Shown here in pieces: positions 12,626 through 29,468 of a stretch of DNA of 47,083 bases. This DNA comes from an uncultured Flavobacteriaceae bacterium (GTDB taxonomy: Bacteria; Bacteroidota; Bacteroidia; Flavobacteriales; Flavobacteriaceae). Position 1 is the first letter of the stretch. The number at the start of each line of letters is the position of its first letter. The DNA lies in assembly GCA_905479625.1 (NCBI GenBank), contig CAJQNF010000082.1, positions 1-47,083 on the forward strand, in the 5' to 3' direction. Both the position numbers and the translations under genes were made by a program. The notes beneath the pieces are model-generated. The model had not been told where the DNA came from and did not search any database. It was given only the letters and a program-made list of their open reading frames with translations.

Positions 12626-13624
12626 CTATTGTTGTTCTTTTTGTAATCTCTTTTCTTCCTTAAGTCTTGCTTTTTCCTGCTTTCTAAAGTAACCCTTAAA
12701 AAAAGTATTATGCTTTAGTGCTTCTAGGTTTTCATTTAGCATAACGCTTCCCTCCTTAATGTTTTTAACAGTTTCACCAATATCCTGCACCAAAATGGTA
12801 TCAGAAACCAAATAATTGAAAGTACCTTCTCCCTCTTTTACACTTAAAATCACCTCATTCAGGTTATTGATGACCAGATTGATATCTTCACTTGATTGTT
12901 CCAGATTGGCCATAACAGTTCTAAACTGCTGTGCCGCAACTGAATCCTTCAACAGAACGTTTAATAAATTGTCTTGGTTATCGACTGAGCTCACAACCGT
13001 ATTTATCTCATCAATTACCTTTGAAGCATTTAGGCTAGCATTTTTCAGGTTGCCTATAGTTTCCTTAAGGTCAGTTCCCATTGCCTGGTCATTCACCAAT
13101 AACCCCAAAGTTCCTTTTCCTTCATTGATACTGTGGGTGATCTTTAAAAGTTCTTGTGAAAGCTCTGCTACATTATCATTGGTAACACTCAAGGTAGACA
13201 TCATGTCTGTACTAGACTTTTTTGTAACGGATCGTATGGTATCTCCTTGCTGCAAGACTTGCCCTTTTCCGTCACCTGGAAAAATGTTCACGACCATACT
13301 CCCTACCAAACCATCTGATCCTATAACGGCAAAGGCGTTTTCCTTCATATGTCTTCGGATACTTTCTTCTATCACCATATCCACGCAAATTGTTGAATCA
13401 TCAACCATTAAAATGTCTTTGACTGTTCCCACATTAATACCCGCGTAACGCACATTATTTCCAAGTTTTAGGCCACTGACATTATGGAATACCGCTGTGA
13501 TTTTAAAGGAATCACCGAATAAATTTTGCTTTTTACCGATAAGGTACAAAGAGACGATCAGTAAGAGTCCGGTAAACATCACGAACATTCCAAGTTTTGC
13601 TTTTTGTGTGTCTGTAATTTTCAT
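12626..13624 (-). CDS. mlaD: MlaD-like MCE-domain substrate-binding protein
   Basis: 332 residues from the ATG at 13624; a TTG two codons upstream is also possible. One membrane anchor (about 10-25) is followed by the MCE domain (about 35-115: VFHNVSGLKLGNNVRYAGINVGTV, then the hydrophobic SDGLVGSMVVNIFPG). A long helical, coiled-coil region runs to a charged Lys/Glu tail. MCE proteins form hexameric lipid tunnels between inner and outer membrane. It is the last of three tightly spaced genes after MlaE and MlaF. MlaB and MlaC homologues are not in this operon, as I recall for many Bacteroidota. Confidence 0.88.
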   Translation of the reverse strand: MKITDTQKAKLGMFVMFTGLLLIVSLYLIGKKQNLFGDSFKITAVFHNVSGLKLGNNVRYAGINVGTVKDILMVDDSTICVDMVIEESIRRHMKENAFAVIGSDGLVGSMVVNIFPGDGKGQVLQQGDTIRSVTKKSSTDMMSTLSVTNDNVAELSQELLKITHSINEGKGTLGLLVNDQAMGTDLKETIGNLKNASLNASKVIDEINTVVSSVDNQDNLLNVLLKDSVAAQQFRTVMANLEQSSEDINLVINNLNEVILSVKEGEGTFNYLVSDTILVQDIGETVKNIKEGSVMLNENLEALKHNTFFKGYFRKQEKARLKEEKRLQKEQQ

Positions 13625-13630
13625 AATCAA

Positions 13631-14344
13631 TTATTTAAAAAAGGCCTGTATTCTTTCATCTGTTGAAGATGATAATTCCTTAAAGCTACCCTCAGCATAG
13701 TTCAAACCGTCAATGAGCAAAATCATACGATCTGCAATAACTCTTGAACAATCTACATCATGGGTAATGATCAAAGCCGAAGAGCCGTAAATCTCTTGAA
13801 TCTCCCTCATCAATTGAATAATTTCCTTCGCGGTAATCGGGTCCAATCCGGTGGTTGGTTCATCATAAATGATAATTTTAGGATGAAGAATTACCGCCCT
13901 TGCCAAGGCCACCCTTCTTTTCATCCCACCTGAAAGTTCATTGGGCACCAATTCGATAGCGTCCAGTAACCCTACACTCTCAAGCGCCTGAAATACAAGT
14001 TTGTCTTTTTCTTTCTGAGGCATGTTCTGTTTTCGTAACGGAAATTCCAGATTCTCCCTAACTGTCATAGAATCATAAAGTGCACTTCCCTGAAATAGAA
14101 ATCCTATTTTCTTTCTAAGCTGATCCAACTCTGTTTGTTCCAGTTCAAGGACTGTTTTTCCCATGATCCGGATATCTCCTGAATCTGGCTGCATAAGTCC
14201 CATTAAACATTTGATCATAACAGATTTTCCAGAACCAGATTTCCCCATAATGACGAGGTTTTCACCTTCTTTTAACTGCATATCAAACCCTTTAAGAACT
14301 TTATTCTCGCCAAAGCTCTTTTTCAGATCATGTATTTCCAGCAT
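13631..14344 (-). CDS. mlaF: MlaF-like ABC transporter ATPase
   Basis: 237 residues from the ATG at 14344 (MLEIHDLKKSFGENKV), chosen because family members begin just ahead of this strand; the open frame reaches a TTG at 14371. Walker A is GKSGSGKS, the signature is LSGGMKRRVALARA, Walker B with catalytic Glu is IIIYDEPTTGLD, and the H-loop is IITHD. The LSGGM variant of the signature and the long GLDPITA D-loop are typical of Mce/Mla ATPases. With MlaE it powers lipid movement through the MlaD ring at the inner membrane. Confidence 0.92.
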   Translation of the reverse strand: MLEIHDLKKSFGENKVLKGFDMQLKEGENLVIMGKSGSGKSVMIKCLMGLMQPDSGDIRIMGKTVLELEQTELDQLRKKIGFLFQGSALYDSMTVRENLEFPLRKQNMPQKEKDKLVFQALESVGLLDAIELVPNELSGGMKRRVALARAVILHPKIIIYDEPTTGLDPITAKEIIQLMREIQEIYGSSALIITHDVDCSRVIADRMILLIDGLNYAEGSFKELSSSTDERIQAFFK

Positions 14345-14375
14345 GATTTTTATGTTGTCTGCTTCTTTCAATTTT

Positions 14376-15155
14376 TTAGTTATAAAATATATCTGTCACA
14401 AAAACTGCTATAAAATCAATTATAAATAAGAGCATAGAGGTAAAAACAACTGCCGAGTTTGAGGCCTCACCTACCCCTACTGTTCCTCTTTCACAATTAT
14501 ATCCTTTAAAACATCCTACTAATCCAATGGCAAAACCAAAGAAGAATGATTTTACAATAGCCGGATTGATATCCGAGAATTCCAGTGCATCAAAAACATT
14601 GTTAAAAAATAAAAGAAAAGATACTTCTCCTTTTAAGTTTTCAATAATGGCGGAGCCCAGCAAGGCAATGGCGTCACCATAAATGATCAACAAAGGAATC
14701 ATCAATGTTGCTGCAAGTATTCTGGTTACAACCAGATACTTAAAAGGATTGGTTCCTGATACTTCCATGGCATCGATCTGTTCCGTTACCCGCATTGATC
14801 CTAGTTCGGCCCCTATTCCCGAGCTGATCCTTCCTGCACAAATTAAAGCAATGATCACCGGGCCTATTTCTCGAACTATAGAGATCCCTACCATGGAAGG
14901 CATCCAGGATTCAGCTCCAAATTCCATTAAGGTCGGCCTTGTTTGAAGTGTCATGACCAAACCTAGAATAAATCCTGTAACGCCCACTAAAACAAGCGAT
15001 TTATTACCCATTTGATAACATTGCCTCAATAGTTCTTTAAGTTCAAAAGGTCTCGTAAACACCTCCTTGAAAAACCTTCCTGCAAAATAGGAAAGCTCAC
15101 CAACTTCGATCAGAAAGGACCTGACAGCGTGAGTTATGTGTAGCTCATGATTCAT
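14376..15155 (-). CDS. mlaE: MlaE-like ABC permease
   Basis: 259 residues with about five membrane segments and the MlaE family signature: IVREIGPVIIALICAGRISSG followed by AELGSMRVTEQIDAMEVSGTNP. The N-terminal interfacial helix (GRFFKEVFTRPFELKELLRQCYQMG) is the segment that packs against MlaD/MlaF. It is the first gene of the leftward mlaE-mlaF-mlaD operon. Direction of lipid transport (maintenance of outer-membrane asymmetry or supply) cannot be judged. Confidence 0.92.
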   Translation of the reverse strand: MNHELHITHAVRSFLIEVGELSYFAGRFFKEVFTRPFELKELLRQCYQMGNKSLVLVGVTGFILGLVMTLQTRPTLMEFGAESWMPSMVGISIVREIGPVIIALICAGRISSGIGAELGSMRVTEQIDAMEVSGTNPFKYLVVTRILAATLMIPLLIIYGDAIALLGSAIIENLKGEVSFLLFFNNVFDALEFSDINPAIVKSFFFGFAIGLVGCFKGYNCERGTVGVGEASNSAVVFTSMLLFIIDFIAVFVTDIFYN

Positions 15156-15279: not shown

Positions 15280-16365
15280 CTAGAGAAGGATTCTTTTAGA
15301 TCCTTTGTTGCTTGATTCAAAGATGGCTTCTACAATACGAATATCTTTTAATCCTTCTTCACCGGGCACAAGTGGTGCCTTTCCTTGCTTAATCGCCAAA
15401 GCGTCATCATCCATTTGTCTGGCTTGCTGATTTCCTCTAAATGGTGATACAATTTGACCATCGCTTGTCTTTCCCGCAACTCCGCTATACGATTGAAAAG
15501 GTTTCAGTTCATACCAACCTGATTGACAATCAACTTTAAGATGATTCATGTTTTCAGCAAATGAAGTTTTACAATTCGCCAATATACCTCCTGGAAATTC
15601 CAGGTCAAAAAAAGTGGTCTCATCAGCTTTAAAAAGTTCAGGCCTGCTATTCTCGATTCTGGCACTAACACTTAAGGGTTCCATTTGAGTGGTATAACGC
15701 ACAGCATTTAAAGGATATACTCCCATATCGAACATGGCACCTCCTGCCAGTTCCTTATGCAATTTCCAATGTGTACCATCTCCTCCACTGTTGTAAAATC
15801 CGGCTTCAGCCTTTAATTTTTGAATCATTCCATAAGGCTTTGTTCCAGCCATGGAAATGATCTTCTGGGTAACAGGTTCATGCTGCATTCTGTAACCTAT
15901 TGTCAATTGTACCTTGTTTTTTTTGCAGGCTGCGATCATCTCTTCACAATCTTTGACCGTAGGTGCCATGGGTTTCTCGCACCAAACATGTTTCCCTGCA
16001 TTTGCTGCTATAATCGTGTATTTCTTATGCAAGGCATTGGGTAATACAATATAGACCACGTCGATATCATCATTTTCGGCAATCTCATGCATATTTTCGT
16101 AATTGTAAACATTCTTGTCTACAATACCATATTTTGCCTGCCAAACAGGGATTTTATCGGGAGTCCCTGTGACAATTCCACGGAGCTCACAATGTTCTGT
16201 AAGTTGCAAGGCGGGAGCCAATAAGTCTCTGCTGTAATACCCTAAACCTACAAGTGCTACCCCCAACTTCTTTTCGGGTCGGGCAAATAGTAATTGAGGA
16301 AAAGAAACGGTACTGGCTGCTATTAGTAAACCAGATTTTTTGAGGAAGGCTCTTCGATTGTCCAT
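15280..16365 (-). CDS. Tat-exported Gfo/Idh/MocA-family oxidoreductase
   Basis: 361 residues. The N-terminus has a twin-arginine-type signal (NRRAFLKKSGLLIAASTVSFP), then the NAD(P)-binding GLGYYSRD in a Rossmann fold (about 33-150), the family motif CEKPMAPTVKDCEEMI (about residue 129) and a C-terminal alpha/beta domain with AGGAMFDMGVYPLNAVRYTT. It resembles glucose-fructose oxidoreductase, which is exported folded with bound NADP. The conserved lysine of EKP is present, so it is probably active on a sugar or polyol. It lies about 100 bases after the DUF5009 gene; linkage to the polyketide operon is uncertain. Confidence 0.85.
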   Translation of the reverse strand: MDNRRAFLKKSGLLIAASTVSFPQLLFARPEKKLGVALVGLGYYSRDLLAPALQLTEHCELRGIVTGTPDKIPVWQAKYGIVDKNVYNYENMHEIAENDDIDVVYIVLPNALHKKYTIIAANAGKHVWCEKPMAPTVKDCEEMIAACKKNKVQLTIGYRMQHEPVTQKIISMAGTKPYGMIQKLKAEAGFYNSGGDGTHWKLHKELAGGAMFDMGVYPLNAVRYTTQMEPLSVSARIENSRPELFKADETTFFDLEFPGGILANCKTSFAENMNHLKVDCQSGWYELKPFQSYSGVAGKTSDGQIVSPFRGNQQARQMDDDALAIKQGKAPLVPGEEGLKDIRIVEAIFESSNKGSKRILL

Positions 16366-16464: not shown

Positions 16465-17637
16465 TTACAATTTTAAGGAAAATCCTTTTTTTTCAAAAAC
16501 GCCCGTTAACCCAACAATAAAAAGAGCAAACAAGAATGATATCAATAACCCAAGCCAAGAGGTTGTCAACAGTTCCGGAAGATGAATTCCAGATATCTCT
16601 CTCATGGGATAAATAAAATAGGGAAGCATATAACAGGTCAGTGTAGCTGTTCCTGCCGGGGCTATAAACTTTGCCCATGAAACCTGCTTTTTGATATCGC
16701 CGATATAATAAAATAACATAAACAGAATGAATCCGATTCCTGTGCAGATCGATAGCCATGATGGGGTTCCCTGAATTTTTGAAATCCCCCAGATATCCCT
16801 TGTTGCCAAACCAAAGAAAATATTTACAGTTCCCAGAATCAAAAGTATCCATAAAACATAATTTGACTTCTTCTTTGGTATTTTCATAAACAGTAATGTT
16901 GCCAAAATACCAGCAGTAGTAAAGGCTGGAATCGTACCTGTATATATAGTTGACAGTAAGCCCATAAACCCTTGGCTTTCTATAGCAAAATCTGAAAAAT
17001 TAAGAGCCGCTAACAGGTTCAATATTAACCAAACAAAGATCATGAACCACAAGTTCCCTTTGCTATACAGGTAAATAAGGGCATTAAAAAGGTAGGCCCA
17101 GCCTATTAGACCTAAAATTCCCCACCATTGAGTTGTAAACCATAATTCTCCATTACTTCCTCCTTTGTAAATACCTGCCAAATAGAGTAAAATACAAAAA
17201 CCCACAACCTGTATCGGGAGATGCCATTTTTTCGGAACCGGGCTTCTTTTCCAATTCATCCATATAAGACCCACAGCCAAAGCCATCAACAAACCCCAAA
17301 CACTTTTACCTCCTGGAATTCCATCACTATAAGCCGTTTCCCAATTCACCATGAACAAACCAATCAATAATAACGACAGGGACCTGATCAATATATGCTT
17401 CGTAATAGTTGTCCGACTATCTCCTTTATCTAATCGATTCTTTATGGCAAATGGAATACTTAAGCCTACTATAAATAAAAATAAAGGAAAAATAATATCA
17501 GAAAAGCCCATATAATCTTCAGTTGCTGAGGCATGGGTCAGCCATTTAGGCACTTCTTTCAATGTCCAGAAATCATTGACCCAGATCATCAGAAGCATGG
17601 TTAAGGCTCTTAATATATCGATTGATGCTATTCTCAT
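16465..17637 (-). CDS. DUF5009 / HGSNAT-like multi-pass membrane acyltransferase
   Basis: 390 residues, about ten to eleven membrane helices. The opening RIASIDILRALTMLLMIWVND and the following FSDIIFPLFLFIVGLSIPFAI are the hallmark of the DUF5009/HGSNAT family, in which the mammalian member transfers acetyl groups from cytosolic acetyl-CoA across a membrane to glucosamine. Bacterial roles are poorly known, mostly glycan- or peptidoglycan-sugar related. It starts 25 bases after the phosphopantetheinyl transferase and may be the last gene of the polyketide operon, where it could tailor or handle the product, but it may equally work on sugars with the downstream oxidoreductase. Confidence 0.75.
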   Translation of the reverse strand: MRIASIDILRALTMLLMIWVNDFWTLKEVPKWLTHASATEDYMGFSDIIFPLFLFIVGLSIPFAIKNRLDKGDSRTTITKHILIRSLSLLLIGLFMVNWETAYSDGIPGGKSVWGLLMALAVGLIWMNWKRSPVPKKWHLPIQVVGFCILLYLAGIYKGGSNGELWFTTQWWGILGLIGWAYLFNALIYLYSKGNLWFMIFVWLILNLLAALNFSDFAIESQGFMGLLSTIYTGTIPAFTTAGILATLLFMKIPKKKSNYVLWILLILGTVNIFFGLATRDIWGISKIQGTPSWLSICTGIGFILFMLFYYIGDIKKQVSWAKFIAPAGTATLTCYMLPYFIYPMREISGIHLPELLTTSWLGLLISFLFALFIVGLTGVFEKKGFSLKL

Positions 17638-17662: not shown

Positions 17663-18256
17663 TTATTTTTGACTTTTCTTATAATTGCTAATCACATAAG
17701 ATCCATAACGACCGTGATGGCTAAGAGAACATAATTGGTGTATTTTTTGCCCCATTTGGTATAACTCAGGAATGCCAAGGTAATTCTTCTCTATAACCAC
17801 GTCGCTTTCGTCATAACTCATACTGATTGCTATTGATGAAATCATAGCATTATATAACTGTTTTTTACCCAGGTGATCTTGACTTATACTAATTACTTCG
17901 GAAAAAAGACCTGTACCAGATTCCCCTGCATAGGCCTGGGTATGTACAAAATTATTGTTTACTTCAGAAACAGTATGGTATATTTTACCGCCACATGTTA
18001 CAATTCCTTTATCATCAGCGAGGATTTGACATTCAAAAGCTTTCGGATTTAATTGGATGCTTTTATGAACTCTTAGCCGGGCTTTATAGGCGCTTTCTTT
18101 CATCGACCAGAGTTTCCACACTAAAATATCAGGCGCTGATGATTCAAGGATCATCGCTTGTTCATTTGAGGAATACACTTTTTCCAGAAATCCTTTACGC
18201 CTCCAATTACTCTGCTTTTCAGCCAGATTTAAGTCAACAATATCGTTACCAATCAT
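17663..18256 (-). CDS. 4'-phosphopantetheinyl transferase
   Basis: 197 residues. The Mg-binding motif MIGNDIVDLN (Asp5, Asp8) opens the protein and the second family motif is LWSMKESAYKA (Trp50, Lys53, Glu54, Lys58). The enzyme moves phosphopantetheine from CoA to the serine of a carrier protein. It is larger than AcpS and smaller than a typical Sfp, in the range of compact group II enzymes. It lies 11 bases after the ACP gene, so the operon carries its own activating enzyme, which suggests that its unusual ACP is not served well by the housekeeping AcpS (inference). Confidence 0.88.
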   Translation of the reverse strand: MIGNDIVDLNLAEKQSNWRRKGFLEKVYSSNEQAMILESSAPDILVWKLWSMKESAYKARLRVHKSIQLNPKAFECQILADDKGIVTCGGKIYHTVSEVNNNFVHTQAYAGESGTGLFSEVISISQDHLGKKQLYNAMISSIAISMSYDESDVVIEKNYLGIPELYQMGQKIHQLCSLSHHGRYGSYVISNYKKSQK

Positions 18257-18267
18257 TTAGCTTAAAA

Positions 18268-18519
18268 TTAGGTTATCATTTTCTTCTGAATGATCTCCAA
18301 AGCTTGTTTTACGCTTAACATTTGCTCCATGGACTCATTGTCTATTTCAATATCAAACATATCCTCAACGTCCAGCACAATATCAATGAGATTCGCCGAA
18401 TTCACCTTTAGATCATTGATAAAATCGGTTTCCTCAGTAAGTTGCTCAAAAGCAGTCTGATCCTGAACATAAGGCTTTACGATCTCTTTTAATTTTTTAA
18501 TTAATATTTCCTTTTCCAT
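18268..18519 (-). CDS. Acyl carrier protein dedicated to the type III PKS operon
   Basis: 83 residues, acidic, four-helix ACP pattern (MEKEILIKKLKEIVKPYV, then DFINDLKVNSANLIDIVLDVEDMFDIEID). The attachment serine should be Ser41 in VNSANL; the usual DSL/DSLD triplet is replaced by NSA, although the spacing to the following IVLDVEDMFDIEI helix is canonical. It should carry the growing acyl chain as a thioester. It sits between ketosynthase (3-base gap) and phosphopantetheinyl transferase. Confidence 0.88.
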   Translation of the reverse strand: MEKEILIKKLKEIVKPYVQDQTAFEQLTEETDFINDLKVNSANLIDIVLDVEDMFDIEIDNESMEQMLSVKQALEIIQKKMIT

Positions 18520-18522
18520 TTT

Positions 18523-19797
18523 TTAATCTTTAAATTTTTTGAAAATTACACAGGCATTTACATCTCCAAACCCGAAGCTTGCCTTGATCACTGTAGATAC
18601 TTTTTGGTCTCTCCTTTGATGCGGAATTGACAATTCTCCAATTTCTTCCTTAATTTCAGGATGGAGATCTTCACAATTGATCGATGGGAAAATAAAATTA
18701 TGCTCAATTTGCAATACTGAGGCCACACATTCTATACTGCCTGCAGCCGCCAAACAATGCCCTGTCATTCCTTTTAGTGAATTGATAGGCGGAAAATTAT
18801 TTTTTGAAAGATCCAGTGCGTGTTTCCAGTTTTTTATTTCTAAAGTATCCTTTGAGGTTGCTGTAAGGTGGCCGTTGATTGCGTCTATGTCAGTAGCCTT
18901 TATACCTGCATCCTTTAAAGCCGATTCAATGCACTTTTGAACGGCAATAGAATTTGGGGCCGTCATGGTTCCTCCATTCCGCTGACCACCTGAATTTATA
19001 TGTCCACCAAGGATTTCTGCATAAATAAAAGCCCCTCTTTCTTTGGCGCTCTCAAGATCCTCAAGCAATAAGGCTCCTGCCCCTGAGCCGGGGACAAATC
19101 CTGAAGCCGATGCACTCATGGGTCTTGATCCTAGCGAAGGACTTTCGTTGTATTTATAGGTCATTACCCGCATGGCATCGAAGCCTCCCCAAATATAGGT
19201 GCCGTGATCACTGCAGCTTCCTACCAGCATCCTTTTGGCCTTACCATTTTGGATCCGTTCAGCTCCCAGTAAGATAGCCTCTGTTCCAGTCGTACAGGCT
19301 GAAGAATTCGTACTCACTTGATTGCCACATCCCAGAATACCCCCCAAATAGGCACTAATACCACTGGACATGGTTTGAGCAACAGTATTGCTCCCCAAAC
19401 GTCTTACCTGGCCCTCATCCAATTTATAAACCGCTTCTCTGAATTTATCAACACCTGATTGACCTGCCCCAAAAATAATTCCTGAGTCATAATCCACTTC
19501 TCTTTCCTCGTCATTTTCGAGACCGGCATCCTTCCAGGCATCCATCCCTGCCATACATCCATATAAAATTCCCGAACTGTTAAAATTCCTAAGTTGTAAA
19601 GGCGTTAAATATGCAGCTTTTAGTTCACCGGAAACTTCAGGAATTCCTCCAATACAACAAGAAAAGCCCTTGTCTTTAAGTTCCTGATAATACTGAATAC
19701 CGGAAATTCCCTGCTGAAGGGATTTTAGAAAATCAGGAATGCCCACCCCATTAGGTGATACGACCCCTAGCCCGGTTATAACTACTCTTTTTTTCAT
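18523..19797 (-). CDS. Beta-ketoacyl-ACP synthase (FabF/FabB type)
   Basis: 424 residues, usual KAS I/II length. The catalytic triad is intact: Cys168 in SSACTTG, His310 in NGHLTATSKD and His347 in GMTGHCLAA. The FabF-type glycine-rich end (KASFGFGDVNACVIFKKF) is present. It condenses malonyl-ACP with an acyl-ACP and so extends the chain on the neighbouring ACP. Differences from housekeeping FabF include NGHLTAT in place of the usual NAHGTST around the first His, typical of specialised KASs in secondary-metabolite loci. It overlaps no gene but is 4 bases from the dehydratase. Confidence 0.9.
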   Translation of the reverse strand: MKKRVVITGLGVVSPNGVGIPDFLKSLQQGISGIQYYQELKDKGFSCCIGGIPEVSGELKAAYLTPLQLRNFNSSGILYGCMAGMDAWKDAGLENDEEREVDYDSGIIFGAGQSGVDKFREAVYKLDEGQVRRLGSNTVAQTMSSGISAYLGGILGCGNQVSTNSSACTTGTEAILLGAERIQNGKAKRMLVGSCSDHGTYIWGGFDAMRVMTYKYNESPSLGSRPMSASASGFVPGSGAGALLLEDLESAKERGAFIYAEILGGHINSGGQRNGGTMTAPNSIAVQKCIESALKDAGIKATDIDAINGHLTATSKDTLEIKNWKHALDLSKNNFPPINSLKGMTGHCLAAAGSIECVASVLQIEHNFIFPSINCEDLHPEIKEEIGELSIPHQRRDQKVSTVIKASFGFGDVNACVIFKKFKD

Positions 19798-19801
19798 ATA
19801 C

Positions 19802-20233
19802 TTATGCTAGCATTCCTGCGATTTCACCCCTGCAAACCAATTGCCCTTGCTCATTCACAGCTTTTACATGACACTTTAACTTATTAAATCTAAAATACTG
19901 CTTTTCTGAAATTACTGTTATCTTTTCTTTAGGATATACCGGATGGAAAAAATCAATTTTATGCGATGTTAAAGCAATTTTTGGCGCCTGCTGTTGCAAA
20001 TCATTTGGAAATAAAAGAATCCCCAAACAAACAACCCCAATTTGCGCCATAACCTCCGTTAAAATAACTCCGGGGGTAACCGGATGGTCTTTAAAATGTC
20101 CCTTATAATAGAAACTATCTTCCGGAAATGTATAGGTTCCTGTAATGCCATTTTCTGATATATCCGTTAATTCATCAACGAATAAAAAAGGCCTCTGATA
20201 AGGCAAATATTTTATAATTTCTTCTGACTTCAT
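19802..20233 (-). CDS. FabZ/FabA-like 3-hydroxyacyl-ACP dehydratase
   Basis: 143 residues, single hot-dog domain. The active site GHFKDHPVTPGVILTEVMAQIG has His46 and Glu60, a spacing of 14 residues as in FabZ. The N-terminal PYQRPFLFVDEL is the family's substrate-entry segment. It removes water from 3-hydroxyacyl-ACP to give enoyl-ACP. It lies 1 base after the reductase and 4 before the ketosynthase. The operon has no separate ketoreductase, so 3-hydroxyacyl-ACP must come either from the housekeeping FabG or from the adjacent SDR enzyme. Confidence 0.85.
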   Translation of the reverse strand: MKSEEIIKYLPYQRPFLFVDELTDISENGITGTYTFPEDSFYYKGHFKDHPVTPGVILTEVMAQIGVVCLGILLFPNDLQQQAPKIALTSHKIDFFHPVYPKEKITVISEKQYFRFNKLKCHVKAVNEQGQLVCRGEIAGMLA

Positions 20234-20234
20234 A

Positions 20235-21029
20235 CTAACTTAAATGCTCACCCCCATCCACTGGCAGTATACAACCATTGATCCAGGAAGCTTCTTTTTT
20301 ACATAACAAATAAACGGCATTGGCGACATCTTCCTCAACGGTCAACCTACCAAATGGATTTCTCATTACCGCATGCTTCTTGATCTGATCACTGCCCGGT
20401 ATCATTCTTAACGACATGGTATCGGTTACACCTGCCTGAATGCAGTTCGCCCTTATCCCAAAAGGAGCAAATTCAAGCGCTATATTTCTGGTAATGGCTT
20501 CTAAACTTGCCTTTGCGGATGAGACTGCAGCATAATTTTTCAGTGGCCGCCTCCCTCCTTCACTGGTAAAACTAATGATCCTGCTGTCGTTAGCAAGGAA
20601 TTGTTCATCAAACAGCGACTTAAACCAATCATATAGACTAAGCGCCATGGCCTGAATAGTGATGTCAAAATCCAAGACCATCAAACTATTTGAACCTTCC
20701 TCTGTCATGGGTTTTAAATTCCCTTTTGCAACACTATGCAGTAAACATTTAATTTTCCCATTGTCACCCAATTTTATTTTCAATTCATTTAAAACCGCTC
20801 TTTTATGTTCAGGACGTAATATGTCTCTATTAAAAGACAATAAGTCTACTTGACAATTTCGAATCTCAGAAAAATGTTTTTCTATCTCCGGCATGTCTGA
20901 TTTCCTGTCACGATGAACAATACAGATATTCATCCCATGTTTGGCCAGTTTCTTTGCAGAGGCCAAACCTAAGCCCCGGGACCCTCCTAGTATCAAGGCC
21001 CAATCGTTATTTTTAAATTCCTTTACCAT
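20235..21029 (-). CDS. FabL/FabI-like SDR reductase (probable enoyl-ACP reductase)
   Basis: 264 residues, Rossmann SDR with GGSRGLGLA at about 15-23. The catalytic pair is Tyr166 and Lys173, a Y-x6-K spacing, which distinguishes FabI/FabL enoyl reductases from the Y-x3-K of ordinary ketoreductases. CLLHSVAKGNLKPM matches the FabI-type HS(A/V)A segment after the third strand, and ISFTSEGGRRPLKNYAAVSSAKASLEAITRNIALE resembles FabL. It most likely reduces enoyl-ACP to saturated acyl-ACP with NAD(P)H; a ketoreductase role cannot be excluded. Its start overlaps the type III PKS stop by 7 bases. Confidence 0.75.
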   Translation of the reverse strand: MVKEFKNNDWALILGGSRGLGLASAKKLAKHGMNICIVHRDRKSDMPEIEKHFSEIRNCQVDLLSFNRDILRPEHKRAVLNELKIKLGDNGKIKCLLHSVAKGNLKPMTEEGSNSLMVLDFDITIQAMALSLYDWFKSLFDEQFLANDSRIISFTSEGGRRPLKNYAAVSSAKASLEAITRNIALEFAPFGIRANCIQAGVTDTMSLRMIPGSDQIKKHAVMRNPFGRLTVEEDVANAVYLLCKKEASWINGCILPVDGGEHLS

Positions 21030-22075
21030 TCCAACAATATTCTTTGTGCAGAAAATCCTGGCCCAAAACTTAGCATGAGACCTTTTTCTCCGGGTTTAAT
21101 ATCTCTTTCCATAAATCGCTGAAGCACATACAAGACCGTTACACTTGACATATTTCCATACATTTTGAGCACATCTTTTGTATCATCAATGTTTTTACCC
21201 AACGAGCCAAATAACGCCTCCACGGTTTGCACAATTTTCTTTCCTCCCGGATGAAAGATCAAATGATCTACATCTTCAATCTTTATTCCATTTCTTTCCA
21301 AAAAAGGATGTACGATAGCCGGGAAATGATTGGATATAGTTTCAGGAACCGATTTATCAAGTATCATTTGTAATCCTGAATTTCTCAACTTAAAACCCAT
21401 CATTTGTTCCGCATCATAAAAATGATACATCGCTTCGTCAACAATAGTTGGTCCTGAATCTTCCGGGCAAGATGATAAGATTACACTTGCGGCACCATCA
21501 CCAAAAATAGCAGCGCTTACAATATTCACCATAGAAAAATCTTCTAATTGAAAGGTTGCTGTGGGAGATTCTACTGCCACAACTGCCGCTCTTTTACCTG
21601 GGTTCGCTTTGAGGAAGTTTTTAGCATAAATAACACCTGATACGCCTGCAGCACATCCCATTTCTGTAACCGGGAGTCTCACAACATCTTGTTTCATCTC
21701 CAATCTATTGATCAAATAGGCATCCAAAGAGGGTATCATAATCCCAGTGCAACTCACAGTAATCAAAAAATCAATGTCAGTAGGCTTTAGTGAAGACTTC
21801 TCAAGTGATTTTTTAAGACAAGACTCCCCTAGAATAATAGACTCTCTTTCATAGATTTCATTTTTTTCCTCAAAAGAAGTTTTGTTAAATACTTCATCTG
21901 CATCCATAATGGAGTACCTTCTGTCTACCCCTGCATTCTCGAATAATTTAATGACTTTCCTTTTAAAACGCTCCTCCTGCCCCTCCAACCAAAGGTTCAA
22001 AAAAGGAATAATTTCCGAAGTATTTCTTGTATATTTTGGCAACGACTTTGCTACCGATAAAATTTTAACGCTCAT
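21023..22075 (-). CDS. Type III polyketide synthase (chalcone synthase superfamily)
   Basis: 350 residues from the ATG at 22075, which overlaps the upstream methyltransferase stop as ATGA; an upstream start at 22096 adds only seven residues. The type III PKS triad is intact: Cys141 in EMGCAAGVSG, His275 in HLIFHPGG and Asn308 in MYGNMSS. The C-terminal LSFGPGFSAQ is the conserved GFGPG loop. Type III PKSs work as ACP-independent homodimers that extend a CoA- or ACP-borne starter with malonyl-CoA and cyclise it. Bacterial members beside fatty-acid-like genes often take long acyl starters and make alkylresorcinols or alkylpyrones. That inference fits the FAS-like set following it here. Confidence 0.92.
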   Translation of the reverse strand: MSVKILSVAKSLPKYTRNTSEIIPFLNLWLEGQEERFKRKVIKLFENAGVDRRYSIMDADEVFNKTSFEEKNEIYERESIILGESCLKKSLEKSSLKPTDIDFLITVSCTGIMIPSLDAYLINRLEMKQDVVRLPVTEMGCAAGVSGVIYAKNFLKANPGKRAAVVAVESPTATFQLEDFSMVNIVSAAIFGDGAASVILSSCPEDSGPTIVDEAMYHFYDAEQMMGFKLRNSGLQMILDKSVPETISNHFPAIVHPFLERNGIKIEDVDHLIFHPGGKKIVQTVEALFGSLGKNIDDTKDVLKMYGNMSSVTVLYVLQRFMERDIKPGEKGLMLSFGPGFSAQRILLEW

Positions 22076-22779
22076 ATATTTGTTTTCATAATCCACTGAT
22101 ACCTAAAGGCCCATTTCCAATTGATATTACTTTTTATTTGTAATTGATTTGCAAAATATTCCAATTCACCTTTTTTAAATCCTCTGCGAATAGAAATCAG
22201 GCCATCATTTCTAATAATCTTATTGTTAATAAAGAAGCTGATGATACTAAATAAGAAATAGGCCAATTTGTTCCGGTGAAGATCGTTTACCACGATTCCA
22301 AGCCTTGCCTGTTCTTTGAGAAGACGTAACTTATCCAGTATTTCCTTATCATTCAAATGATGGAGAAAAAGGGTAGAAAGCGCAATATCATATTTTAATT
22401 CTCTAAACTCTTCTGAAAAAATATTCATTTGTACATAAGTGATATTTGGAAAACCTAAAGATAATAGCCTCGCATATTGAATACTATCTTTATTGGCATC
22501 AATCCCAATTAATTTAAATTGATAACCCAATTTTTCACCAAGTTTGGAGACTCTTCTCAACATATCACCATTACCGCATCCCAAATCCACAATAACCAGT
22601 TCTTTGTCTTTTGGAAGATTTTCAGTCAGTTGTTGAATTCCGTCAAGGCTAACTTGATTTCCACCCAACCACTTATTGATACTGGCCAGGATATCTAAAT
22701 TGGTTCTTAAAGCTTTTCCTTCTAAAGTGAAATCATCCATGATCTCCCTTTCATCGGTTCTGTATGTTGTATCTATCAT
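22072..22779 (-). CDS. Class I SAM-dependent methyltransferase
   Basis: 235 residues. The SAM-binding motif I is IVDLGCGNGDMLRRV (Asp65-Gly71), followed by the acidic end of strand 2 (LIGIDANKDSI), motif II-like YDIALSTLFLHHL and VVNDLHRN. The N-terminal YRTDEREIMDD is found in a group of Bacteroidota and actinobacterial methyltransferases that sit with type III PKS and FAD-oxidoreductase genes. A likely job is O- or C-methylation of the polyketide phenol. Its start overlaps the FAD gene by four bases (22776-22779), and its end overlaps the PKS start, so all three are translationally coupled. Confidence 0.87.
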   Translation of the reverse strand: MIDTTYRTDEREIMDDFTLEGKALRTNLDILASINKWLGGNQVSLDGIQQLTENLPKDKELVIVDLGCGNGDMLRRVSKLGEKLGYQFKLIGIDANKDSIQYARLLSLGFPNITYVQMNIFSEEFRELKYDIALSTLFLHHLNDKEILDKLRLLKEQARLGIVVNDLHRNKLAYFLFSIISFFINNKIIRNDGLISIRRGFKKGELEYFANQLQIKSNINWKWAFRYQWIMKTNI

Positions 22780-23900
22780 ATACCCTCTATTAATTTACCA
22801 TGAGTCATACTAATAATGCGTCTCACCAATCCAGGGAAACTTTTTAAACTGTTCATTACATATAAAGCCACTGATTTCATGGTAAACAGACGGGCCAAGA
22901 ATCTCCCGGTTTCTATTCTTAACTTAAAGGCTTTATTCCATTGTGCCTTGTATTTATCTTCGACTTCGCTTCTTAACAACCCTTGCTCAAAATATTCTAC
23001 AATCAGTTCTGAAGCCATTTTTGCTCCTTGAATTGCCATACTCATGCCATTACCGCATAAAGGATGTATCATACCCGCACTATCTCCGCACATCAAAATA
23101 TGATCCTCAGTTACAGGCTTAGATGCAAAAGAAATCTGACTGATACTTAAGGGTTTTTCAAAAGTACTTGTTGCATTCTTAAAAATAGCGCCAAGCGCTT
23201 TGTTATTACAAATAACTTTTGCCTTAAAGTCATCTATGTTTTTATATTTTTTAAATTCATCATATTGCGCTATATAACATATATTGACAAGGTTATTTTC
23301 AATTTTTGAGACGCCACAATAACCACCATAAAAATGGTAAAGGCCTACTAAATCTTCAGGGTAATCAACTGAATAATGCTCCTTCACAGCCAAATACGGG
23401 GCCTTGGAATCTAAAAAACTCCGTTTGAGCTTCTGGTCCAAATTAGACCGCTTACCAAAGGCTCCAATAACAAAGGTACCTTCCAAATTACCGGTTTCTT
23501 TTAGAGTAAGGAGAAAGCGATCATCTTTAAATTTTATATCCAGAACAGCATCCTCCACAAAATGAACACCGTTAGTAATGGCTTGGTTAAACATTGCCTG
23601 ATCAAGCGTATATCGGCTCAGGCTAAACCCTCCTAATGGTAACTTTGCCTTAACAGCTTTACCTTTCACAGCGCTTAATTCAAAATGTTCAATTTTTTTT
23701 GCACCAAAATCAAATGGATCAAAACCCAATGATCTCAGATAAGGTAACACTTCGTTTGACAGGTATTCTCCACATACTTTATGCCTGGGATAACTGTTTT
23801 TCTCAACCAGCGTAACCTGTATTCCAAAACGTGACAAATGAAGTGCGCTAGTCAATCCGGCCAAACCGCCACCAACAACAATTACATGTTTTAAGGACAT
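22776..23900 (-). CDS. FAD-dependent oxidoreductase (UbiH/geranylgeranyl-reductase-like)
   Basis: 374 residues from the ATG at 23900 (MSLKHVIVVGGG); a GTG at 23909 directly abuts the stop of a short upstream reading frame and is an alternative. The GGGLAGLTSALHLSRFG nucleotide loop (about 10-26) and the second FAD motif ILMCGDSAGMIHPLCGNGMSMAIQGA (about 275-300) are present, as is PRHKVCGEYLSNEVLP, typical of geranylgeranyl-reductase-like proteins. In type III PKS loci such flavoproteins hydroxylate the aromatic ring towards a quinone, or reduce double bonds in a side chain; both are possible. It opens the polyketide operon. Confidence 0.87.
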   Translation of the reverse strand: MSLKHVIVVGGGLAGLTSALHLSRFGIQVTLVEKNSYPRHKVCGEYLSNEVLPYLRSLGFDPFDFGAKKIEHFELSAVKGKAVKAKLPLGGFSLSRYTLDQAMFNQAITNGVHFVEDAVLDIKFKDDRFLLTLKETGNLEGTFVIGAFGKRSNLDQKLKRSFLDSKAPYLAVKEHYSVDYPEDLVGLYHFYGGYCGVSKIENNLVNICYIAQYDEFKKYKNIDDFKAKVICNNKALGAIFKNATSTFEKPLSISQISFASKPVTEDHILMCGDSAGMIHPLCGNGMSMAIQGAKMASELIVEYFEQGLLRSEVEDKYKAQWNKAFKLRIETGRFLARLFTMKSVALYVMNSLKSFPGLVRRIISMTHGKLIEGI

Positions 23901-23909
23901 TCTTTTCAC

Positions 23910-24150: not shown

Positions 24151-25410
24151 ATGGCGAAAAAACATAAAATAATAATTATTGGAGCTGGCTTCGGTGGGAT
24201 AACGCTTGCAAAAACGTTGAGAAACAAGAATGTAGAAATACTCCTTATTGATCAAAATAACTATCATAATTTTCAACCTCTGATGTATCAAATTGCAACG
24301 GGAGGATTAGAACCTTACAGTATCGCTTACCCGGTTAGAAGAATATTCAGGAATCGAGATAACATCAGATTTAGAATGACCAAGGTAAAATCTGTCAATA
24401 CAGATGCTAAAAAAATAAAAACCTCGGTTGGGAGTTTTAAATACGATTATTTAATTATTGCAACGGGCAGTAAAAGTAATTTTTATGACTTTGACGATAT
24501 CAAGAATATTTTATTTCCGTTAAAATCAATTCCAGATGCCTTAAACATGAGAAGTTTTATTTTTCAGAATTTAGAAAAATCACTCACAAAACAGTCTGAT
24601 GAATCTTTGGAGGAAATTTTAAATATTGCGATTGTTGGAGGTGGCCCTGCCGGGATAGAATTAGCTGGTGCCTTAGCCGAAATGAAACGATATGTGATTC
24701 CGAAGGATTTTCCTGACTTGGATATTTCAAAATTAAGTATCAACCTGTATCAATCTGCACCAAAATTATTAAAAACCATGTCTGAAGAGGCCTCTCAAAA
24801 GGCCTTGGAGTATCTAAAAAATCTTGGGATCAATGTCTGTTTAAATTCCAGAGTAACCAATTATGACGGAGATAAACTTAGCCTTGGAGATGGAAGTTCC
24901 TTTCCAACAGATACACTTATATGGACTGCAGGGGTTCAAGGAGCTCCAATTAAAGGATTGCCGAAAAAAGCGATCGTAGGTGGTAATAGAATTCTGGTTG
25001 ATTCTTATAATAAGGTAATACATACAGATTCCATTTTTGCAATTGGTGATGTAGCCTCCAATATAACAGAAGAAAACCCCAGAGGATTGCCTATGCTGGC
25101 TCCGGTGGCCAAACAGCAAGGGAAACTACTGGCAAAAAATATCAATCGGTTGATCAATAATAAACCAATCAGTCCATTTGAATATAAAAACCGGGGTGTT
25201 ATGGCTACAATTGGTCGAAAAAAAGCAGTGGTTGACCTACCCAAGTGGAAGACTCAAGGTACTTTTGCATGGTTTCTTTGGATGTTTGTGCACATTATGT
25301 CCTTAGTTGGGTTTAGGAATAAGTTTGTGGCCGTTTTTGACTGGATCGCAAATTATTTAACCTACGACAGGCCTTTAGGATTGATTCTCAGACCGCATAA
25401 AAGGAAATAA
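24151..25410 (+). CDS. Type II NADH:quinone oxidoreductase (NDH-2)
   Basis: 419 residues. Two dinucleotide folds are present: FAD-binding IIGAGFGGITLAKTL at about residues 8-22, and NADH-binding IAIVGGGPAGIELAGALAEM near 162-180. NDH-2 signatures are NYHNFQPLMYQIATGGLEPYSIAYP, a WTAGVQ segment and FAIGDVAS (second FAD motif), and the C-terminus is hydrophobic (WFLWMFVHIMSLVGFRNKFVAVFDWIANYLTY), serving as the membrane anchor. It passes electrons from NADH to quinone without proton pumping. It is divergent from the polyketide operon; because the predicted product might be a lipoquinone, the adjacency is suggestive but not proof of a link. Confidence 0.9.
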   Translation: MAKKHKIIIIGAGFGGITLAKTLRNKNVEILLIDQNNYHNFQPLMYQIATGGLEPYSIAYPVRRIFRNRDNIRFRMTKVKSVNTDAKKIKTSVGSFKYDYLIIATGSKSNFYDFDDIKNILFPLKSIPDALNMRSFIFQNLEKSLTKQSDESLEEILNIAIVGGGPAGIELAGALAEMKRYVIPKDFPDLDISKLSINLYQSAPKLLKTMSEEASQKALEYLKNLGINVCLNSRVTNYDGDKLSLGDGSSFPTDTLIWTAGVQGAPIKGLPKKAIVGGNRILVDSYNKVIHTDSIFAIGDVASNITEENPRGLPMLAPVAKQQGKLLAKNINRLINNKPISPFEYKNRGVMATIGRKKAVVDLPKWKTQGTFAWFLWMFVHIMSLVGFRNKFVAVFDWIANYLTYDRPLGLILRPHKRK

Positions 25411-26439: not shown

Positions 26440-28116
26440 ATGGAAAATCAGAAATTAACACCCTGGCAACGATTTATAAGTTTACTTGAATTGGATAAAA
26501 GAGATATCAGGCAGGTTTTTTATTATGCCATTTTTGCGGGTTTGGTTGCATTATCCCTTCCTTTAGGGATTCAAGCCATTATCAATTTAATACAAGGCGC
26601 ACAAATTTCCACCTCATGGATAGTCTTGGTGATTGTTGTAACTCTTGGCGTTGCCTTTCAAGGTGTTTTGCAATTGATGCAAATACGTATATTAGAAAAT
26701 ATACAGCAAAAAATTTTCACCCGATCCTCATTTGAGTTTGTGTATCGTTTCCCAAAAATAACCTTGCATGAACTGCGCAATGACTATCCTCCTGAATTGG
26801 CCAATCGGTTTTTTGATACCCTAACGGTTCAAAAAGGTTTATCTAAGATTTTAATTGACTTTCCGGCAGCTTTGTTACAAATTGTCTTGGGATTATTGCT
26901 CTTGTCCTTCTACCATCCATTCTTTATTATTTATGGAATTTTACTGCTTCTTTTAGTGTTTCTACTATTCAAGTCAACAGCTAAAAAAGGATTGGATACC
27001 AGTTTATTAGAATCTAAAAAAAAATACAATGTAGCTCACTGGATTCAAGAAGTTGCCAGATCCTTGATCAGTTTTAAACTTTCAGGAAGGACCAATCTGG
27101 CCATGAAAAAAAATGATGAGTTAACCACAGCTTATCTGGAGGCCCGAGAAAGCCATTTTAAAGTATTGATGCATCAATTTAGCCAAATGATAGGTTTTAA
27201 GGTACTTGTTACTTTGGGATTATTATTGATAGGAGGTCTTCTGGTCATCAATCAACAAATGAATATAGGACAATTCGTTGCGGCTGAAATTATTATTCTG
27301 CTTTTAATTAGTTCCGTTGAAAAAGTGATTACTGGATTAGAATCATTTTACGATGTACTTACTTCACTTGAAAAAATTGGACAAGTAGTGGACAAAGATT
27401 TAGAACAACAAGAGGGTGAAGATCCTTTTGTCACTAAAAATGGTATTACAGTTGAATTGAATGATGTAAAATACAAACTTCCGGATGGCGAAGAAATTCT
27501 TAAGGGAATAACTTTTACATTTTCATCCAAAGACAGAATTCATTTAACCGGCGCTTCAAGTTCAGGTAAAACAACCTTACTTAAGCTTATCTCAGGATTG
27601 ATACCAACTAGCTCCGGATCATTATTCATCAATGATATTTCAGCCAAAGCCATCTGGCCAAATATTTACAGATCTAACATTGGTCAGGTGTTGCCCGGAC
27701 AATCTCCCTTTGAAGGAACGATTCTGGAAAACATCATTTTTGATAAAAAAGATTATAGCAATGAACGTTTGAATGAGGTCTTAAACAAATTGGGCTTAGT
27801 CGATTTTATAAAGCGACAACCCAATGGCATTCATACGGTTATCCATCCTGAAGGTCAAAAAATACCCATCACCATATCCAAACGTATTTTAATGGCTCGT
27901 GCTATTCTTCACGATCCGAAATTACTCATTCTTAAAGATCCGCTTGAATATTTTGAAGATGAGGAAGCCGAACGAATTATCAATTATCTGGCTTCACCAG
28001 AAAGGAATTGGGCGCTGGTAGTTTCGAGTAATAACCCGGTATGGAGACAAAACTGTGGACGAACTATTCTTTTGAACAATGGAATTCTAATGAAAAACAA
28101 CGGTCAAGATGCTTAA
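26440..28116 (+). CDS. ABC exporter-like protein with degenerate ATPase site
   Basis: 558 residues: type I exporter transmembrane domain (about 1-320, six helices) fused to a nucleotide-binding domain (about 330-550). Walker A is normal (GASSSGKTT, 371-379) and a Q-loop is present (GQVLPGQSPFEGT). The ABC signature LSGGQ is replaced by IPITI (475-479), the Walker B Asp-Glu by Lys499-Asp500, and the H-loop His by Ser/Asn (530-531). A homodimer would lack both composite ATPase sites. The peptidase domain of bacteriocin exporters is absent. It is the first gene of a three-gene operon with HlyD and TolC-like proteins. It may bind ATP without hydrolysing it, act as a structural channel, or pair with another ATPase. 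Confidence 0.88.
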   Translation: MENQKLTPWQRFISLLELDKRDIRQVFYYAIFAGLVALSLPLGIQAIINLIQGAQISTSWIVLVIVVTLGVAFQGVLQLMQIRILENIQQKIFTRSSFEFVYRFPKITLHELRNDYPPELANRFFDTLTVQKGLSKILIDFPAALLQIVLGLLLLSFYHPFFIIYGILLLLLVFLLFKSTAKKGLDTSLLESKKKYNVAHWIQEVARSLISFKLSGRTNLAMKKNDELTTAYLEARESHFKVLMHQFSQMIGFKVLVTLGLLLIGGLLVINQQMNIGQFVAAEIIILLLISSVEKVITGLESFYDVLTSLEKIGQVVDKDLEQQEGEDPFVTKNGITVELNDVKYKLPDGEEILKGITFTFSSKDRIHLTGASSSGKTTLLKLISGLIPTSSGSLFINDISAKAIWPNIYRSNIGQVLPGQSPFEGTILENIIFDKKDYSNERLNEVLNKLGLVDFIKRQPNGIHTVIHPEGQKIPITISKRILMARAILHDPKLLILKDPLEYFEDEEAERIINYLASPERNWALVVSSNNPVWRQNCGRTILLNNGILMKNNGQDA

Positions 28117-29464: not shown

Positions 29465-29468
29465 TCAT

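What the first reader, a model, noticed from the sequence alone, without database searches (positions are those of the whole stretch)
17663..23909. Type III polyketide synthase operon with its own acyl-ACP machinery
Eight genes, from a 25-nt overlap at most to an 11-nt gap, run FAD oxidoreductase, methyltransferase, type III PKS, FabL/FabI-like reductase, FabZ-like dehydratase, KAS, ACP and phosphopantetheinyl transferase. The PKS triad (Cys141, His275, Asn308), KAS triad (Cys168, His310, His347) and dehydratase His46/Glu60 are intact. PKS + methyltransferase + flavoprotein recalls the srsABC phenolic-lipid genes of Streptomyces, where the methyltransferase is of another fold. What looks unusual is the added dedicated FAS subset with its own PPTase, without a ketoreductase or malonyl transferase. 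I infer that an acyl-ACP made in-operon is the starter and that the product is a methylated, oxidised alkylresorcinol, pyrone or quinone-type lipid.
Basis: partly seen in the sequence, partly recalled or inferred. Interest (0 to 1): 0.85.

Follow-up and report, generated by a model that had tools for sequence, protein, structure and literature searches.

The report
Lipid-making operon with own starter supply
A common but uncharacterised gene cluster of marine Flavobacteria seems to build its own fatty chain on a private carrier protein and hand it to a ring-forming enzyme, probably to make a methylated, oxidised phenol- or quinone-type lipid; the chemistry has not been tested.

Summary
In detail: eight tightly packed minus-strand genes with intact catalytic residues, in a Lutimonas-like Flavobacteriaceae genome. 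The order FAD oxidoreductase, methyltransferase, type III PKS, enoyl reductase, dehydratase, KAS, ACP, PPTase recurs exactly in 53 of 80 named loci.

In three overlapping samples every genome with this PKS subfamily also has the KAS: 17 of 17, 25 of 25 and 26 of 26. The KAS cassette also occurs away from the PKS, in nine other genomes: beside DarB, a FabH-like KAS or glycosyltransferase genes, or alone. It looks like a portable acyl-ACP supply module, though four of those genomes hold a distant type III PKS elsewhere.

The carrier is private: N-S-A in 75 of 75 copies, against D-S-L in the genome's housekeeping ACP. In 30 loci a YceI-like lipid-binding gene is coupled upstream; its orthologue lies 1.6 kb upstream here. 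The enoyl reductase is missing in 16 of 80 loci.

Best reading: a dissociated-FAS analogue of Azotobacter arsABCD joined to an srs/pkq/hierridin-like tailoring core. Product unproven; resorcinol versus pyrone undecided. New variant of a known kind.

The parts
22776..23909 (-). FAD-dependent oxidoreductase (geranylgeranyl-reductase/hydroxylase superfamily); possible ATG start at 23900
   Evidence: WxWxIP absent in 80 of 80; AF2 model pLDDT 88.4, nearest PDB folds are halogenases, 3nix and 3-hydroxybenzoate 6-hydroxylase
22072..22779 (-). class I SAM-dependent methyltransferase
   Evidence: PF13847 49.9 bits; best NCBIfam PRK06202 122.8 bits, below its cut-off of 243
21023..22075 (-). type III polyketide synthase (ATG start; a GTG at 22096 is also open)
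   Evidence: PF00195, PF02797, PF08392 above cut-off; Cys141/His275/Asn308 invariant in 80 of 80; AF2 pLDDT 82.9; nearest PDB folds CylI and PKS11
20235..21029 (-). FabL-like enoyl-ACP reductase (SDR, Y166-x6-K173)
   Evidence: FabL model 144.9 bits, best of 198; nearest solved structure 3oic, an NADPH enoyl-ACP reductase (140.4 bits, next 99.1)
19802..20233 (-). FabZ-like 3-hydroxyacyl-ACP dehydratase (His46, Glu60)
   Evidence: PF07977 47.6 bits; residues invariant in 76 of 76
18523..19797 (-). KAS I/II-type ketoacyl-ACP synthase (Cys168, His310, His347, Lys342)
   Evidence: PF00109/PF02801; residues invariant in 75 of 75; the draft genome shows one other KAS, 34% identical
18268..18519 (-). 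acyl carrier protein, Ser41 in an N-S-A motif
   Evidence: ACP models in NCBIfam, PF00550 19.1 bits; NSA in 75 of 75; housekeeping ACP has DSL
17663..18256 (-). 4'-phosphopantetheinyl transferase, 197 aa
   Evidence: PF01648 48.6 bits; one of two found in the draft genome
25552..26100 (-). YceI-like lipid-binding protein, N-terminus like a signal peptide (by eye); coupled to the operon in many relatives, here separated by a divergent NDH-2-like gene
   Evidence: PF04264 83.9 bits; best of the genome's three YceI genes for 33 of 33 operonic YceI proteins

Best explanation
The operon is a self-supplying pathway for an alkyl phenolic or quinone lipid. The operon PPTase loads phosphopantetheine on Ser41 of the private ACP. 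The KAS, the FabZ-like dehydratase and (where present) the FabL-like reductase build an acyl chain on that ACP, with malonyl-ACP formation and keto reduction borrowed from the housekeeping FAS. The chain passes from the ACP to Cys141 of the type III PKS, which adds malonyl units (three if the product is a resorcinol) and cyclises. The methyltransferase and the flavoprotein then methylate and hydroxylate the ring to a methoxy-hydroquinone/quinone-type lipid. In many relatives a secreted YceI-like protein probably binds the product outside the cytoplasm. Shown here: gene content, order, residues, co-occurrence, carrier motif, folds of two models. Inferred: every catalytic step, acyl-ACP as donor, ring type, product and role.
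For: Order conserved over genera. Every genome with this PKS subfamily also has the KAS: 17 of 17 among 60 relatives, 25 of 25 among 296 of the phylum, 26 of 26 among 395 of the class. The cassette also lies beside other lipid genes: DarB/DarH (L198), a FabH-like KAS (L204), a family-2 glycosyltransferase (L199, L201, L215), as expected of an acyl supplier. ACP motif NSA in 75 of 75 versus DSL in the housekeeping ACP; an operon PPTase beside a second one elsewhere. Y-x6-K in the reductase. PKS model nearest to CylI and PKS11, both users of alkyl chains (substrates). Precedents in print: arsABCD with FAS and PPTase (PMC4824345); ACP-to-PKS transfer in ArsB/ArsC (PMC6274091); type III PKS + methyltransferase + oxidoreductase giving methoxylated alkyl(hydro)quinones in Streptomyces (PMC9927152) and hierridins (PMC8086630).
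Against: No chemistry. PKS11, an alkylpyrone synthase, is the closest solved enzyme by sequence and equals or exceeds CylI by TM-score, so a pyrone is not disfavoured by fold. Thr at the position of CHS Thr197 (80 of 80; meaning) does not predict an open acyl tunnel, though PKS11 aligns Thr there too. L047 and L106 break right after the reductase with no DH/KAS/ACP on the sequence held, about 9 kb and 1.8 kb. The enoyl reductase is absent in 16 of 80 loci and those genomes show no close homologue. The flavoprotein's nearest folds include halogenases. All four KAS-only genomes of the phylum sample hold a distant type III PKS elsewhere (172-241 bits), so the cassette there may serve a PKS in trans rather than another head enzyme. 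Samples overlap and genomes are related, so the counts are not independent.
Confidence: 0.55

Rival explanations
1. Same supply logic, but the PKS lactonises its chain and the product is a methylated alkyl-alpha-pyrone, oxidised on the chain or ring.
For: PKS11, which makes alkylpyrones, is the closest solved enzyme by sequence (198 bits) and has TM-scores of 0.90-0.92 to the model. Ring type cannot be read from the sequence here.
Against: CylI, solved with a resorcinol product, ranks first by Foldseek E-value. A methyltransferase plus oxidoreductase beside the PKS is the pkq/hid pattern, whose reported products are resorcinol-derived.
Confidence: 0.2
2. Reverse order: the PKS makes a small aromatic acid from malonyl-CoA (DpgA-like), which is loaded on the ACP and lengthened by the KAS/DH/ER module into an omega-aryl lipid.
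For: The best NCBIfam model for the PKS is DpgA (181.6 bits). Aryl polyenes and flexirubins use an aromatic starter on such modules (recalled).
Against: Far below the DpgA cut-off of 425; no ligase, acyl transferase or dpgBCD-like gene among the eight; the cassette also lies away from any PKS; PKS fold closest to alkyl-chain users.
Confidence: 0.1
3. The FAS-like genes make a separate lipid or acyl donor that happens to be co-regulated with a PKS that uses ordinary acyl-CoA.
For: The cassette exists without this PKS (L203, L205 among others). Type III PKSs generally take acyl-CoA.
Against: No genome in three samples has this PKS subfamily without the KAS; pairwise distances of PKS, ER and KAS over 53 loci correlate (Spearman 0.70-0.79, no phylogenetic control).
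Confidence: 0.1

Closest known systems
arsABCD of Azotobacter vinelandii
   Same: Operon with a dedicated fatty acid synthase and its own PPTase feeding type III PKSs; chain handed over from the carrier protein (PMC4824345, PMC6274091; passages seen).
   Different: The FAS is one protein, ArsA (type I: recalled), and there are two PKSs without methyltransferase or flavoprotein; here the FAS is dissociated (KAS, DH, ER, ACP) and tailoring genes and often YceI are added.
srsABC / pkqABC / hidABC type III PKS operons (Streptomyces, mycobacteria, cyanobacteria, planctomycetes)
   Same: Type III PKS next to a methyltransferase and an oxidoreductase; products are alkylresorcinols, hierridins or polyketide quinones (PMC9927152, PMC8086630, PMC10896814; passages seen; srsABC recalled).
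   Different: No FAS cassette or PPTase appears in the passages seen. Gene order here is FADox-MT-PKS. No reference sequences of these genes were compared.
Bacteroidota PKS-MT-FADox operons without a cassette (L170, L167, L168)
   Same: PKS, MT and FAD oxidoreductase; in L170 clearly homologous to the window's (MT 154, FADox 359 bits).
   Different: PKS only 189-201 bits to the window profile, reverse gene order, no KAS/ACP/DH/PPTase beside it; in L167 and L168 the oxidoreductase is only 24-37 bits.
DarB/flexirubin (dialkylresorcinol) loci
   Same: In L198 the ER-DH-KAS-ACP-PPTase cassette lies beside DarB and DarH.
   Different: DarB is a KAS III-type enzyme, not a type III PKS; no darB in the window operon.
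CylI (cylindrocyclophane alkylresorcinol synthase)
   Same: First by Foldseek E-value against the PKS model, TM 0.87-0.90, 27-28% identity; receives an ACP-bound chain (PMC8086630).
   Different: Its chain comes from type I PKSs; it has Met where the window PKS has its second Cys, C109.

Membership tests
Type III polyketide synthases | Cys-His-Asn catalytic triad | tested here: met
   80 of 80
Type III polyketide synthases | chalcone-synthase fold and Pfam domains | tested here: met
Type III polyketide synthases | iterative condensation of malonyl-CoA on a starter | not testable with these tools
   needs enzyme assay
arsABCD-type FAS plus type III PKS operon | dedicated FAS and PPTase in the PKS operon | tested here: met
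   KAS, DH, ER, ACP, PPTase
arsABCD-type FAS plus type III PKS operon | FAS is a single (type I) polypeptide | tested here: not met
   separate genes
arsABCD-type FAS plus type III PKS operon | long-chain alkylresorcinol/pyrone product | not testable with these tools
   needs lipid analysis
srs/pkq/hid-type PKS operon | PKS adjacent to methyltransferase and oxidoreductase | tested here: met
srs/pkq/hid-type PKS operon | orthology of all three genes with the named operons | not tested
   no reference sequence was fetched
srs/pkq/hid-type PKS operon | methylated, oxidised alkylresorcinol or quinone product | not testable with these tools
   needs LC-MS/NMR
DpgA (3,5-dihydroxyphenylacetyl-CoA synthase) | score above the NCBIfam cut-off | tested here: not met
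   181.6 vs 425 bits
DpgA (3,5-dihydroxyphenylacetyl-CoA synthase) | dpgB/C/D neighbours (recalled) | tested here: not met
   none named among the operon genes by Pfam/NCBIfam
FabL-type enoyl-ACP reductase | Y-x6-K active-site spacing (rule recalled) | tested here: met
   window Y166/K173; Y 63 of 64, K 64 of 64
FabL-type enoyl-ACP reductase | score above the NCBIfam FabL cut-off | tested here: not met
   144.9 vs 328 bits
FAD-dependent halogenase | WxWxIP motif (recalled) | tested here: not met
   0 of 80
YceI family (upstream gene) | PF04264 above cut-off | tested here: met
   83.9 vs 23.7 bits

The most novel reading that the evidence does not exclude
The operon makes a redox-active 'polyketide quinone' that marine Flavobacteria use as a second membrane quinone, chaperoned by a secreted YceI-like protein; and the ER-DH-KAS-ACP-PPTase set is a portable acyl-ACP cartridge that Bacteroidota plug into different lipid head enzymes (type III PKS, DarB, FabH-like KAS, possibly others). 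The cartridge half has fair comparative support, weakened because four cassette genomes also hold a distant type III PKS elsewhere. The quinone half rests on analogy with pkqABC, the YceI partner, and an NDH-2-like neighbour in six of the ten same-genus loci seen, window included.
Probability: 0.17. Interest if true: 0.85.

Novelty: new variant of a known kind. Interest (0 to 1): 0.6.

Why it matters
Type III PKS clusters make up 9% and 10.7% of antiSMASH clusters in two surveys of Flavobacteriaceae (PMC7440613, PMC10734526), and no product for them was named in the passages seen; one in Leeuwenhoekiella had no similarity to characterised clusters (PMC9859067). Whether those clusters are of this subfamily was not checked. 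This analysis gives one abundant subfamily a concrete, testable pathway, suggests that its acyl supply is private and transferable between lipid systems, and adds an exported lipid-binding partner. If the product is a quinone it would bear on how these marine bacteria respire or resist oxidants.

Tried and rejected
DpgA-like starter synthesis: below cut-off, no partner genes. Halogenase for the flavoprotein: fold similar but WxWxIP absent in 80 of 80; not fully excluded. Dialkylresorcinol (DarB) synthesis by the window PKS: only 20.0 bits to the StlD/DarB model. NDH-2-like gene (24151-25410) as part of the system: seen only in same-genus loci and in 2 of 80 named loci, L062 and L064, which by contig match two of those same-genus genomes; kept as a neighbour. 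HGSNAT-like gene 16465-17637 and Gfo/Idh gene 15280-16365 as operon members: not found next to the operon outside the genus, rejected. Resorcinol versus pyrone from residues: the CHS-256 position is Phe in 80 of 80, but ArsB Trp281 could not be mapped because no ArsB sequence was reached; dropped. Sigma-70-type promoter scan: 36 found, 37.0 expected, uninformative. Plasmid search: 56 records, all under 60% identity, so no plasmid copy of this subfamily in that collection.

Literature: ten searches. Judged from the titles and abstract starts listed, none describes a dissociated FAS cassette beside a type III PKS in Bacteroidota. The library holds open-licence PMC papers only, and the papers cited were seen only as passages found by term, none as a whole.

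Full report
What is there. The window is contig C82 of a 2.67-Mb draft genome, 84% complete. One 'same genus' relative, G014, has a contig of the same length as one of Lutimonas saemankumensis DP2N0-7, so the host is a Lutimonas-like flavobacterium (inference). The draft genome shows one other KAS (34% identical), one other PPTase and no other type III PKS. The other KAS lies in a block with rnc and a canonical ACP carrying GADSLD (gene names recalled).

Conservation. Among 60 relatives, 17 genomes have the PKS orthologue (541 bits or more; next hit 56) and the same 17 have the KAS at E 1e-120 or better; 43 have neither. In the 16 relatives fetched the genes found lie in the same order and on one strand. 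PPTase was not detected in four (L042, L043, L044, L046), L041 is cut before FADox and MT, and in L043 about 2.5 kb separates DH and KAS. Of these 80, 53 have the exact eight-gene order. In 15 the enoyl reductase is missing, and in L119 only an unrelated SDR lies at the far end. L058 and L066 carry a second methyltransferase before the PPTase, L122 one after it; L095 shows two MT hits; L076 has split genes. L087, L102, L113 and L115 are cut by contig ends. L124 has an unrelated gene where the PPTase should be. L047 and L106 break directly after the reductase.

Co-occurrence. In 296 genomes of the phylum the PKS scores are bimodal: 25 genomes at 620 bits or more, 95 at 142-248 bits. The same 25 have the KAS at 705 bits or more; four others (G104, G135, G156, G184) have a KAS of 518-587 bits without this PKS. 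All four do hold a distant type III PKS elsewhere, at 172-241 bits, so the cassette there might serve it in trans. In 395 genomes of the class, 26 have the PKS (472 bits or more; limit E 1e-78) and 32 the KAS: all 26 PKS genomes are among the 32, six have the KAS alone. The samples overlap (G156 is in both lists) and genomes are related, so these are not independent trials.

The cassette away from the PKS. L198: ER-DH-KAS-ACP-PPTase beside DarB (NF053539, 634.8 bits) and DarH. L199-L201: (ER-)DH-KAS-ACP with a protein that has no Pfam hit (GNAT-like by eye) and a family-2 glycosyltransferase, both tested in L199 and L201 only; no PPTase there. L204: ER-KAS-FabH-like-DH-ACP-PPTase. L203 and L205: the five genes without a recognisable head enzyme. 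L206: KAS-ACP-PPTase on a 5.4-kb contig. L215: DH-KAS-ACP-PPTase followed by PhyH-like and glycosyltransferase genes. L214: the contig begins at the KAS, so its upstream side is unknown. In a KAS tree of 53 chosen rows (52 cassette KAS and one housekeeping FabF) 34 PKS-linked rows form one supported clade (100/98). Eight other PKS-linked rows (L202 and seven of family f89) fall outside it, among unlinked rows; the labels need two changes on the tree, two to three over bootstraps. Long branches make the deeper order unsure.

Private carrier. The ACP serine lies in N-S-A in 75 of 75 operon ACPs, not D-S-L as in the housekeeping ACP. With a PPTase in the operon, the simplest reading is a cognate pair (inference; that AcpS reads the DSL motif is recalled). 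More distant cassettes drift: NSA in L198, NSM in L199, DSF in L200 and L201.

Enoyl reductase. The SDR has Y-x6-K and its nearest solved structure is an NADPH enoyl-ACP reductase, 3oic, by 41 bits. The 16 genomes that lack it in the operon show no homologue above 84 bits (some are incomplete MAGs). Full-length cassette reductases of PKS-linked loci printed score 369-456 bits, except 234-249 in L208-L213. So the host enzyme substitutes or the chain stays unsaturated there.

PKS. The AlphaFold2 model (pLDDT 82.9) is closest to CylI by Foldseek E-value (TM 0.87-0.90) and to PKS11 by TM-score (0.90-0.92); THNS follows (0.88). By sequence PKS11 leads (198 bits), then THNS (185), then CylI (168). 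A second Cys (C109) matches THNS by alignment and is invariant in 80 of 80; Thr stands at the CHS-197 position and Phe at CHS-256 (positions assigned by me from the THNS alignment and the spacing to the catalytic His). PKS11, a long-chain enzyme, also has Thr at the first of these. Starter length and ring type stay open.

Flavoprotein and methyltransferase. The flavoprotein belongs to the geranylgeranyl-reductase/hydroxylase superfamily (109.6 bits, below the 158.8 cut-off); folds nearest are halogenases and hydroxylases, but WxWxIP is absent in 80 of 80. L170 has homologues of both tailoring genes beside a distant PKS (189 bits) without a cassette, so the tailoring core exists on its own.

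YceI. A YceI-like gene sits directly upstream of the flavoprotein gene, same strand, gap -14 to +6 nt, in 30 of the 110 loci with a flavoprotein hit (106 of these had over 800 nt upstream; a few genomes appear twice). In three Polaribacter loci (L105, L107, L112) it is near the 3' end of the operon. The window's copy lies 1642 nt upstream with an NDH-2-like gene between; none was found upstream in the nearest relative, L031. Of the genome's three YceI genes the window's is the best match to 33 of 33 operonic ones; in the six printed cases it scores 86-100 bits and the next paralogue 30-34 bits or nothing (the search profile was seeded with the window copy, a bias). The eight operonic N-termini printed look like signal peptides by eye. 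YceI relatives with solved structures include polyisoprenoid-binding proteins by name. A type III PKS operon of 'Saltatorellus ferox' also has a lipid/isoprenoid-binding gene (PMC10896814).

Comparison with what is known. arsABCD has a dedicated FAS, ArsA, and a PPTase, ArsD (PMC4824345), with direct transfer from ACP to ArsB/ArsC (PMC6274091). Here the FAS is dissociated. PKS + methyltransferase + oxidoreductase operons make polyketide quinones (PMC9927152) and hierridin-type resorcinols (PMC8086630, PMC10896814). In Gimesia maris the methyltransferase gave apparent C-methylation and the oxidoreductase's role stayed open, a warning against assuming each step. All papers were seen as passages found by term, not whole.

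Verdict. Observation confirmed; interpretation plausible and strengthened by co-occurrence, but without chemistry. New variant of a known kind.

Noticed in passing
window 24151-25410 (+): NDH-2-like dehydrogenase (PF07992, PF22366) between the YceI gene and the operon, divergent; also in five of nine fetched same-genus loci, of which L041 is cut and L039 has only 1.4 kb upstream. A quinone link is possible but weak.
   Followed up: partly
window 12626-15155 (-): MCE-type protein, ABC ATPase and permease resembling an Mla lipid-transport set (recalled, not searched) with a patatin-like phospholipase at 11796-12596, on the operon strand downstream.
   Followed up: no
window 26440-30878 (+): ABC exporter, HlyD-like protein (by eye) and outer-membrane efflux protein (PF00005, PF02321) next to the YceI gene.
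   Followed up: no
L090, L098, L107, L109: slot between PKS and DH: In four reductase-less Polaribacter loci a 186-194-aa ORF fills the gap; it looks like a REP-associated transposase (recalled); the one copy tested, L090, gave no Pfam hit.
   Followed up: partly
upstream flank of the operon in 46 of 73 loci, e.g. L057:5969-7123: A D-amino-acid-oxidase-like (PF01266) gene recurs upstream of the operon; could be plain synteny.
   Followed up: no
L157-L166: In nine of ten of these loci with another type III PKS (226-247 bits) the next gene encodes 163-190 aa; the two tested (L157, L158) are ICMT-type methyltransferases (PF04140), a separate two-gene system.
   Followed up: partly
L170:8885-9754: UbiA-type prenyltransferase directly before a PKS-MT-FADox set, suggesting a prenylated product.
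   Followed up: no
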